64,000 nt of DNA from Prochlorococcus sp. AG-363-O06 (GTDB lineage: Bacteria > Cyanobacteriota > Cyanobacteriia > PCC-6307 > Cyanobiaceae): positions 1 to 64,000 of the forward strand of contig QCFY01000004.1 of NCBI GenBank assembly GCA_003280085.1, given 5' to 3'. The notes under the pieces were generated by a model, which worked only from the letters and a program-made list of their open reading frames with translations, was not told the origin of the DNA and made no database searches. Positions 3,057 through 4,845 of the stretch are shown here, one piece after another (the first letter of the stretch is position 1; every line of letters starts with the position of its first letter). The translations under genes were made by a program, and so were the position numbers.

Positions 3057-3380
3057 TCAAAGGTATTTTGAGATGGTTCCAGAGAGTGTTGCCTTGGGTA
3101 CGGCACCAACTACTGTGTCAACTTTTTGACCTCCTTTGAAGACCATCAAAGTGGGAATGCTTCTAATCCCGTATTGACTGGCAACATTGGGATTTTCATC
3201 TGTATTTAATTTAAAGACTTTAATTTTGCCTTCAAATTCTTTTGAGATCTCCTCCACTATTGGAGCAACCATTCGGCAGGGACCACACCAAGGTGCCCAG
3301 AAGTCAACCAATACTGGTACATCGCTTTTTAAGACTTCCTGTTCAAAGGAAGCATCTGTGACTGCAGCTGCGCTTGACAT
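3057..3380 (-). CDS. trxA: Thioredoxin
   Basis: This is a canonical m-type thioredoxin with the redox motif WCGPC (Cys32 and Cys35 with the chosen start). It reduces disulfides in light-regulated enzymes using electrons from ferredoxin-thioredoxin or NADPH-thioredoxin reductase. I chose the ATG at 3380 because it gives 107 residues, the family's usual length, and is preceded by GCGAAGGT as a ribosome binding site. An in-frame ATG at 3449 would add 23 non-conserved residues and runs close to the small RNA upstream. The Yfr1 gene lies directly upstream on the same strand, the arrangement known from Prochlorococcus and marine Synechococcus. Confidence 0.95.
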
Positions 3381-3480: not shown

Positions 3481-3504
3481 AAAAAAGCCCGAATGCATCG
3501 GGCT
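3481..3504 (-). terminator. Rho-independent terminator of Yfr1
   Basis: On the minus strand AGCCCGA, loop TGCAT, TCGGGCT forms a perfect 7-bp stem followed by TTTTTT at 3486-3481. It doubles as the 3' stem-loop of Yfr1. Confidence 0.92.
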
Positions 3505-3540
3505 GGTTGGTGTGAGGAGTGTGTGGGCCGAGGCCCTCAC
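3481..3540 (-). ncRNA. yfr1: Yfr1 small regulatory RNA
   Basis: On the minus strand this 60-nt interval contains, in order: a 5' hairpin (GTGAGGGC, loop CTCG, GCCCACAC); the unpaired motif ACTCCTCACAC at 3520-3510; a short spacer; and a 7-bp GC-rich hairpin followed by six Ts. The 11-nt motif is the invariant single-stranded core of cyanobacterial Yfr1, which base-pairs near the start sites of target mRNAs such as porin-like genes. The location between trxA and guaB is also the published one for this group. A candidate -10 box TAGTAT at 3552-3547 places the transcription start at about 3540. I see no convincing -35 box. Confidence 0.93.
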
Positions 3541-3600
3541 GTATTGATACTAACGCTTGTTCTGAATGTATACATTGGTTTTTTGTCATAGAAATTCCTT

Positions 3601-4764
3601 TTATTTGCCCATTCCCAGCTGCTGTGCTTTTTGATAAACTTTTCCTTCTGTTAGAAGAGACGGGGCTACTACAACTTCTACTTCTTGCATCTCTTTGATT
3701 GTTTGTGCCCCTAAGGTCCCCATTGAGGTTTTTAAGGCACCAAGAAGATTGTGAGTACCATCATCTAATAGCGCAGGGCCTTGGAGGATTCGCTTAATGC
3801 TGCCAGTTGAGCCTACTTTGATTCGGGTACCCCTTGGAAGGACTGGACTTGGAGTGGCCATTCCCCAATGAAACCCTCTTCCGGGGGCTTCTTCCGCTCT
3901 CGCAATAGGAGAACCAATCATCACCGCATCTGCTCCACAAGCAATACATTTACAAATATCTCCACCTGTCACTATTCCACCATCAGCAATTATCGGAACA
4001 TAATTCCCGGTTTCTTTCTCAAAGTCGTTTCTGGCAGCTGCACAGTCCGCCACAGCCGAAGCTTGTGGAATTCCAACTCCTAATACTCCTCTAGATGTAC
4101 AAGCCGCTCCTGGGCCGATTCCAACCATGACTCCCGCTGCTCCGGCTTTCATTAATTGGAGAGCTACTTCGTAAGTCACGCAATTTCCAATAATTACTGG
4201 TATCCCAATCTCTTTGCAGAGCTGTTTTAGATCAAGTTTCTTACGCCCTTTTGGTCCAATGTGCTCGGTCGAAACAACTGTGGCCTGCACAAAAAACATG
4301 TCAGCACCTGCACTTTTAATCGTTTCTCCAAAACGTATTGCTGCAGCAGGTGTTGCGCTAACAGCGGCTATTCCACCTCTAGATTTTATTTCTTGTATTC
4401 GTTGGGTAATCAGAATTTCTTTGATTGGTTCGCTGTAAACCTTTTGCATTAAAGGTACGAAGTTTTCTTTATCTACTGAGGTGATTTGATCAAAAACGGA
4501 TGAAGTGTCTTCATATCTTGTTTGAACCCCTTCGAGATTGAGAACTCCTAAAGCTCCCAGCTTGGATAGCTCTATGGCCATATTTACATCCACAACACCA
4601 TCCATTGCGCTTGCAATGATTGGGATTTCACGTTTGACTCCCCCAACATGCCAGGTGGTGTCAGCGATCTCCGGGTCGACGGTTCTGCCCCCAGGAACGA
4701 GTGCAATTTCATCAATTCCATAGGCTCGGCGTACAACCTTGGAGTGACCTAGCTGAAGATCCAC
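3601..4764 (-). CDS. guaB: GuaB3-type IMP dehydrogenase
   Basis: This is a TIM-barrel IMP dehydrogenase/GMP reductase family protein of the GuaB3 subgroup; it should oxidise IMP to XMP in guanine nucleotide synthesis. The substrate segment GVMVGIGPGAACTSRG carries the cysteine loop, and ADGGIVTGGDICKCIACGAD forms the phosphate-binding region. There is no CBS-domain insertion, which separates it from standard GuaB. The first in-frame start is TTG at 4797, but the GTG at 4764 begins directly at DLQLGHSK, where GuaB3 homologues normally start, and gives 387 residues. Yfr1 and trxA follow on the same strand. Confidence 0.88.
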   Translation of the reverse strand: MDLQLGHSKVVRRAYGIDEIALVPGGRTVDPEIADTTWHVGGVKREIPIIASAMDGVVDVNMAIELSKLGALGVLNLEGVQTRYEDTSSVFDQITSVDKENFVPLMQKVYSEPIKEILITQRIQEIKSRGGIAAVSATPAAAIRFGETIKSAGADMFFVQATVVSTEHIGPKGRKKLDLKQLCKEIGIPVIIGNCVTYEVALQLMKAGAAGVMVGIGPGAACTSRGVLGVGIPQASAVADCAAARNDFEKETGNYVPIIADGGIVTGGDICKCIACGADAVMIGSPIARAEEAPGRGFHWGMATPSPVLPRGTRIKVGSTGSIKRILQGPALLDDGTHNLLGALKTSMGTLGAQTIKEMQEVEVVVAPSLLTEGKVYQKAQQLGMGK

Positions 4765-4845
4765 ATCTGATGCAACACAGTCTCGCCAAGTTACCAAGTA
4801 CTGGGCCTTAATCTCTCTTTGTGGTGAATAGAGAATGAAAAACCC

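What the first reader, a model, noticed from the sequence alone, without database searches (positions are those of the whole stretch)
3481..3540. Yfr1 small RNA with intact ACTCCTCACAC core, between trxA and guaB
All elements of Yfr1 are visible: 5' hairpin, 11-nt unpaired core, terminator hairpin and a -10 box TAGTAT with start at about 3540. The RNA is known, but its exact boundaries and targets in this strain are not, and it is easily missed by gene callers.
Basis: partly seen in the sequence, partly recalled or inferred. Interest (0 to 1): 0.5.

Follow-up and report, generated by a model that had tools for sequence, protein, structure and literature searches.

The report
Canonical Yfr1 RNA, Prochlorococcus-like cyanobacterium
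This is an ordinary, intact copy of a well-known small regulatory RNA of cyanobacteria; its likely binding site sits just before the start of both outer-membrane porin genes found in this genome, and relatives that lost this RNA still keep that site.

Summary
Window 3540→3481 (minus strand) is Yfr1: 64.9 bits against RF01116 (cut-off 38), exact ACTCCTCACAC core predicted unpaired between a 5' hairpin and a terminator, a -10-like box at the matching place in 63 of 63 rows, between guaB and trxA. It is the only copy above cut-off in this genome; 335 of 400 family genomes have one above cut-off. A new member of a known family.

Likely mechanism: the core pairs with GUGUGAGGA at the porin ribosome site. 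Both porins found in this genome carry it. In family porin starts it stands (≥8 nt) in 47 of 52 sites of Yfr1-bearing genomes, against 0 of 50 and 0 of 74 control starts.

Unexpected: the site persists where Yfr1 is gone: 16 of 18 sites in eight low-light-type genomes, 3 of 3 in a sponge-symbiont-like genus. Seven of those eight carry a Yfr10-like RNA with the same core. In G024, with decayed yfr1 and no Yfr10-like RNA seen, the site is gone (0 of 3). Yfr10 standing in for Yfr1 is already proposed in print; the site survey is what this adds. No expression data.

The parts
3481..3540 (-). yfr1, predicted 57-60 nt transcript, 5' end near 3540, 3' end in T run
   Evidence: RF01116 64.9 bits at 3540-3484; fold z -4.87; 5' end by homology to the MED4 sequence in PMC2190773
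3521..3540 (-). 5' hairpin: 7 bp with one 1x1 internal loop
3510..3520 (-). ultraconserved core ACTCCTCACAC, predicted unpaired (unpaired stretch 3520-3505)
   Evidence: exact core in 47 of 55 guaB-trxA spacers drawn from unnamed family genomes
3486..3504 (-). Rho-independent terminator stem-loop, 7 bp, followed by T run 3485-3481
3547..3552 (-). -10-like hexamer TAGTAT; TANNNT at the matching place in 63 of 63 rows with a core
3601..4797 (-). guaB (IMP dehydrogenase), upstream neighbour; start codon not settled
3057..3380 (-). trxA (thioredoxin), downstream neighbour

Best explanation
It is the trans-acting small RNA Yfr1. From its own promoter downstream of guaB it is transcribed as a roughly 60-nt RNA whose two hairpins hold the core ACUCCUCACAC single-stranded. 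The core pairs with GUGUGAGGA boxes that overlap the ribosome site of OprB-type porin mRNAs and lowers their translation. The genome also encodes three Yfr2 (Cyano-1) RNAs with the complementary motif, which probably titrate Yfr1, and two Yfr10-like loci sharing the core. Shown here by sequence: the gene, its predicted structure, the porin boxes, the Yfr2 copies. Inferred from published work on other strains: transcription, repression of porins, titration by Yfr2.
For: RF01116 full-length hit, single copy above cut-off in the genome. Fold and terminator. Synteny guaB-yfr1-trxA as in the table of PMC2190773, exact core in 47 of 55 such spacers. Covariation on 60 rows chosen to hold the core: 91.2% of cells paired against 19.8 to 51.8% when slid, 42 double changes against 17.9 shuffled. 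Porins: GUGUGAGGA 14-15 nt before ATG in both porins found in this genome, duplex -17.3 and -16.3 kcal/mol. Family porin starts: run of at least 8 nt in 47 of 52 sites in Yfr1-bearing genomes; 0 of 50 window ORF starts and 0 of 74 trxA starts have even 7 nt. Porins are reported Yfr1 targets in MED4 (PMC6778093) and among predicted Yfr1 targets in Nostoc (PMC6974561). Three Cyano-1 copies.
Against: No expression data. A genome-wide pattern GTGAGGA-N4-18-ATG gave 19 places against 18 for the reversed control, so there is no general enrichment; the two porins are the only convincing gene starts among them. Seven of 50 control ORF starts also reach a duplex energy of -12 or lower, one of them -17.1, so energy alone discriminates weakly. 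Sites persist in Yfr1-less genomes, so the box cannot be kept by Yfr1 alone. Five of 52 sites in Yfr1-bearing genomes have runs under 8 nt.
Confidence: 0.9

Rival explanations
1. The element is only the transcription terminator of guaB, or a leader of trxA, with no RNA of its own.
For: It lies between two co-directional genes and ends in a terminator. No -35 box was found.
Against: A terminator does not explain a full-length RF01116 match, an 11-nt core kept exactly in 47 of 55 spacers, a positioned -10 in 63 of 63 rows or a covarying 5' hairpin. Yfr1 was verified by Northern blot in other cyanobacteria (PMC2190773).
Confidence: 0.03
2. The segment is coding: a short minus-strand ORF beginning MTKNQCIHSEQ runs through it, and a 134-aa plus-strand ORF covers it.
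For: Both frames are open.
Against: The alignment shows length changes of one or a few bases in hairpin loops and spacer with pairing kept, which would shift either frame. I did not search relatives for these peptides.
Confidence: 0.01
3. The GUGUGAGGA box before porins is just a strong ribosome site and has nothing to do with Yfr1.
For: It contains AGGA, and it persists in genomes without Yfr1 (16 of 18 sites).
Against: 0 of 50 window ORF starts and 0 of 74 trxA starts have even a 7-nt run. In G024, with decayed yfr1 and no Yfr10-like RNA seen, the porin leaders lack the box (0 of 3). Mutation of the core abolished the footprint on the ppa target in MED4 (PMC6778093).
Confidence: 0.12

Closest known systems
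Yfr1 (RF01116), Voss et al. 2007 PMC2190773
   Same: Core, two hairpins, terminator, length, guaB-trxA position, placing of the 5' end at the first stem base.
   Different: Only sequence details: the window copy has a 1x1 A-A interruption in the 5' stem and a 16-nt unpaired stretch, both within the published range.
Yfr10/Yfr12/Yfr18, Steglich 2008 PMC2518516 and Lambrecht 2019 PMC6778093
   Same: Share the core; in this genome two Yfr10-like loci (C9:8276 and C9:14736) lie just upstream of Cyano-1 hits, the arrangement printed for high-light strains.
   Different: Not the given locus. The second copy reads CCTCCTCACAC. Neither 135-nt stretch folds better than shuffles.
Yfr2 / Cyano-1 (RF01701)
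   Same: Carries a complement of the core; three copies above cut-off in this genome.
   Different: A partner and probable titrator of Yfr1, not the same RNA. That Cyano-1 is the Yfr2 family is recalled, not from a call.

Membership tests
Yfr1 (RF01116) | Score above the Rfam gathering cut-off over the full model | tested here: met
   64.9 against 38 bits, positions 1-59 of 59
Yfr1 (RF01116) | Exact undecanucleotide ACUCCUCACAC | tested here: met
   3520-3510
Yfr1 (RF01116) | Core in an unpaired stretch of 16-20 nt | tested here: met
   16 nt unpaired in the predicted fold; the range is from the abstract of PMC2190773
Yfr1 (RF01116) | 5' stem-loop of 6-10 bp, one bulge or internal loop allowed | tested here: met
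   7 bp plus a 1x1 loop; range
Yfr1 (RF01116) | 3' GC-rich hairpin of 6-9 bp with U tail | tested here: met
   7 bp, then TTTTT; range
Yfr1 (RF01116) | Length 54-69 nt | tested here: met
   57-60 nt from predicted ends only
Yfr1 (RF01116) | Position guaB -> yfr1 -> trxA (25 to 27 of 31 published genomes) | tested here: met
Yfr1 (RF01116) | Abundant transcript | not testable with these tools
   no RNA data
Yfr1 (RF01116) | Complementarity to porin mRNA leaders | tested here: met
   2 of 2 porins found in this genome; regulation itself not testable here
Yfr2 / Cyano-1 (RF01701), partner loci | Score above gathering cut-off | tested here: met
   49.7, 47.8 and 45.3 against 41 bits
Yfr10-like, partner loci | Core plus terminator, next to a Yfr2 gene | tested here: inconclusive
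   core (one copy with a mismatch) and terminator-like hairpin read by eye at both C9 loci, Cyano-1 adjacent; folds no better than shuffles

The most novel reading that the evidence does not exclude
The porin GUGUGAGGA box belongs to the core motif rather than to Yfr1: selection keeps the box as long as any core-bearing RNA remains. Low-light lineages that lost yfr1 keep the box and carry a Yfr10-type RNA that presents the same core; sponge-symbiont-like cyanobacteria lost yfr1 independently, keep the box and carry a different core-plus-terminator candidate at another locus; and a lineage with neither a sound yfr1 nor a visible substitute has lost the box.
Probability: 0.5. Interest if true: 0.5.

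Novelty: new member of a known kind. Interest (0 to 1): 0.3.

Why it matters
The given copy adds one more strain to a family already found almost everywhere in cyanobacteria. What is useful is the comparison around it: this sRNA gene has been lost at least twice in the family while its best-known target site stayed. That makes the published suggestion that Yfr10 partly covers for Yfr1 in SS120 (PMC6778093) testable from sequence across many lineages and with porin-leader reporters.

Tried and rejected
Phage-borne Yfr1: a scan of viral contigs for core plus terminator gave 4 contigs, with no guaB or trxA on the stretches held and no Rfam hit above cut-off. Among 33 loci encoding relatives of the gene before it, the core stands in 4 (the same four contigs); most of the others have in its place a hairpin with a different stem and a loop around TTGACTC, and a few are cut short or unlike. 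The few named relatives are Roseobacter phages. Rejected as a chance likeness.

Genome-wide target enrichment: rejected, 19 places against 18 in the control.

ACTCCTCACAC at C18:13586 of this genome lies inside an ORF that begins [28 protein letters not shown] (elongation factor Tu by recall), on its strand, and is taken as chance.

RNAalifold on the MAFFT alignment found only the terminator; the 5' hairpin was therefore counted with a structure that I named. The 60 rows were chosen to hold the exact core, so core invariance in them is by construction; the unselected figure is 47 of 55.

The first porin table counted five genomes in which neither guaB nor Yfr1 was seen as Yfr1-bearing, and one porin twice; one search corrects both. 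The 82 sites are not all matches: they are the best site of 30 genomes, 40 further listed rows whose match begins at residue 1, and the sites less one duplicate. Five further sites looked at later have the box in 2 of 5; in the other three the start codon is uncertain. They are not in the counts.

A first folding of the low-light Yfr10-like loci used the wrong strand for three of them; one search repeats it.

Full report
Observation. The minus strand of 3540-3481 reads GTGAGGGCCTCGGCCCACAC, then ACTCCTCACAC, then CAACC, then the terminator stem-loop AGCCCGATGCATTCGGGCT and a T run. Rfam RF01116 covers it end to end at 64.9 bits, cut-off 38. The predicted fold has z -4.87 and leaves the core and five following bases unpaired. 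The only terminator-like site in the spacer is this one.

Place and copy number. guaB lies upstream and trxA downstream, all on the minus strand. The genome held for the window is 1.42 Mb in 38 contigs, 77% complete, and is the only genome of its genus in the collection; it has no other match near the cut-off (the next is 15 bits). Of 400 family genomes 337 have a match at E 0.01 or better and 335 pass the cut-off; among the fairly complete ones 234 of 251 have a match. I name the organism only as a lineage of the Prochlorococcus/Synechococcus family: the GuaB+TrxA tree leaves it unresolved among rows that include Prochlorococcus sp. AG-363-B04 (L006, whose contig has the length and match of G027's).

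Promoter and ends. In all 63 rows that hold a core in the guaB-trxA spacer (two rows left out: a duplicate and the decayed G024 copy) a TANNNT hexamer stands at a matching place upstream of the 5' hairpin; 34 of 63 fit the tighter TA[AGT][TA]AT. In Prochlorococcus loci with the MED4 hairpin the hexamer is TATTAT, and the printed MED4 sequence starts at the first stem base (PMC2190773). This places the window's 5' end at about 3540.

Structure across relatives. On 60 distinct rows, 91.2% of cells pair, against at most 51.8% when the 3' side is slid; cells with double change number 42 against a shuffled mean of 17.9, while two other measures (pairs with double change, further pair types) do not exceed their shuffles. 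The pair at columns 12-28, the A-A position of the window copy, fails in 40 of 60 rows, so it is best read as an internal loop in this group.

Partners in the genome. Exact ACTCCTCACAC occurs three times: yfr1, C9:8276 and C18:13586. C9:8276 and a one-mismatch copy at C9:14736 each stand about 80 bases upstream of a Cyano-1 (Yfr2) match and are followed by a terminator-like hairpin. A third Cyano-1 is at C15:1339. PMC6778093 (passages) reports Yfr10 upstream of Yfr2 in high-light strains and PMC2518516 (passages) lists Yfr10, 12 and 18 beside Yfr2, 4 and 5. This genome has the same layout though it lies outside the clade of rows with MED4-like hairpins, which I take for the high-light clade.

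Target site. One search finds two porins of this type in the genome; the first is an OprB porin by Pfam, the other is 43% identical to it. Both have GTGTGAGGA 14-15 bases before ATG. Of 76 family genomes searched, 65 have such porins. Of the 82 sites examined a run of at least 8 bases of the complement of the core stands in 47 of 52 in Yfr1-bearing genomes, 6 of 6 in genomes whose status is unknown, 16 of 18 in eight Yfr1-less low-light-type genomes, 3 of 3 in genus g9 and 0 of 3 in G024. Controls: 0 of 50 ORF starts in the window, 0 of 74 trxA starts, and under 0.4% of shuffled leaders. Yfr1-bearing and Yfr1-less low-light sites do not differ (p = 1.0); sites are not independent, so p values are guides only.

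Loss of yfr1. On the tree the seven rows without Yfr1 need two changes, and starred branches force two. The low-light loss is known for the LLII/III ecotypes (PMC2190773, PMC6778093); that my low-light rows are those ecotypes is inferred. Genus g9 has a spacer alike in length and letters to that of Candidatus Synechococcus spongiarum SH4 (L020), so I read it as the sponge-symbiont group; a search for Yfr1 with spongiarum found no paper in the library used, which does not show that it is unreported elsewhere. G024 keeps the core but neither hairpin (17.9 bits; fold z +1.39). For G015, G077, G092 and G090 absence rests on the negative Yfr1 search and on genus, not on a spacer that I read.

Substitutes. 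Seven of the eight Yfr1-less low-light genomes hold a locus with GGACACTCCTCACAC or its near likeness, a following complement of GGACA in most, and a terminator (G010 L317, G064 L304 and L313, G092 L314, G038 L311, G077 L291, G065 L286, G015 L287); TTGGTATA stands upstream in seven of these eight loci, L313 being the exception. Of seven loci folded, the core sits in a hairpin loop in five and is partly paired in two, L311 and L286. G032, 53% complete, shows none. This resembles Yfr10, which PMC6778093 reports in SS120 and proposes as a partial stand-in for Yfr1; I had no Yfr10 sequence to compare with. In all three g9 genomes examined the core is followed by a GCTCCCA..TGGGAGC terminator at a conserved locus (L306, L316, L315); its fold is no better than shuffles (for L306; for L315, a stretch that cuts the terminator), so it is only a candidate. 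In G024 I saw no Yfr10-like locus among its three core matches. One search covered a 10-base pattern exactly, so variants would be missed.

What was read. PMC2190773: parts 1-2 of 4. PMC6778093: parts 1-3 of 7 plus passages. PMC2518516 and PMC6974561: passages. All other papers: search listings only. The original porin-target paper that these cite was not read.

Verdict. The comparative result on the porin site is the part worth following.

Noticed in passing
G000 C9:8129-8286 and C9:14588-14746 (L114, L120): Two tandem pairs of a Yfr10-like core locus and a Yfr2/Cyano-1 RNA about 6.4 kb apart on one contig, the layout printed for high-light strains, in a genome outside that clade.
   Followed up: partly
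L177, L178, L020 (guaB-trxA spacers of genus g9 and Ca. Synechococcus spongiarum SH4): yfr1 is missing and the spacer is 47 bases in all three; a second, independent loss in the family.
   Followed up: partly
L168 / L290 (G024): A yfr1 that keeps the exact core but has lost both hairpins; its three porins lack the complementary box.
   Followed up: yes
L173 (G048) and L363: Yfr1 with variant core ATTCCTCACAC; one porin leader of the same genome reads GTGTGAGGAA, which matches the variant one base further than the usual core.
   Followed up: partly
G000 C2:11382-11395, minus strand (L215): A porin-like start (TGTGAGGAACTAATG, MKLFKKSLV then stop) with no porin similarity after it; perhaps the remnant of a third porin.
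   Followed up: partly
L326 12041-12100 and relatives L328-L354: Marine phage contigs with a short hairpin of changing stem and a loop around TTGACTC followed by a strong terminator, right after a small gene; a possible conserved phage RNA, the few named relatives being Roseobacter phages.
   Followed up: partly
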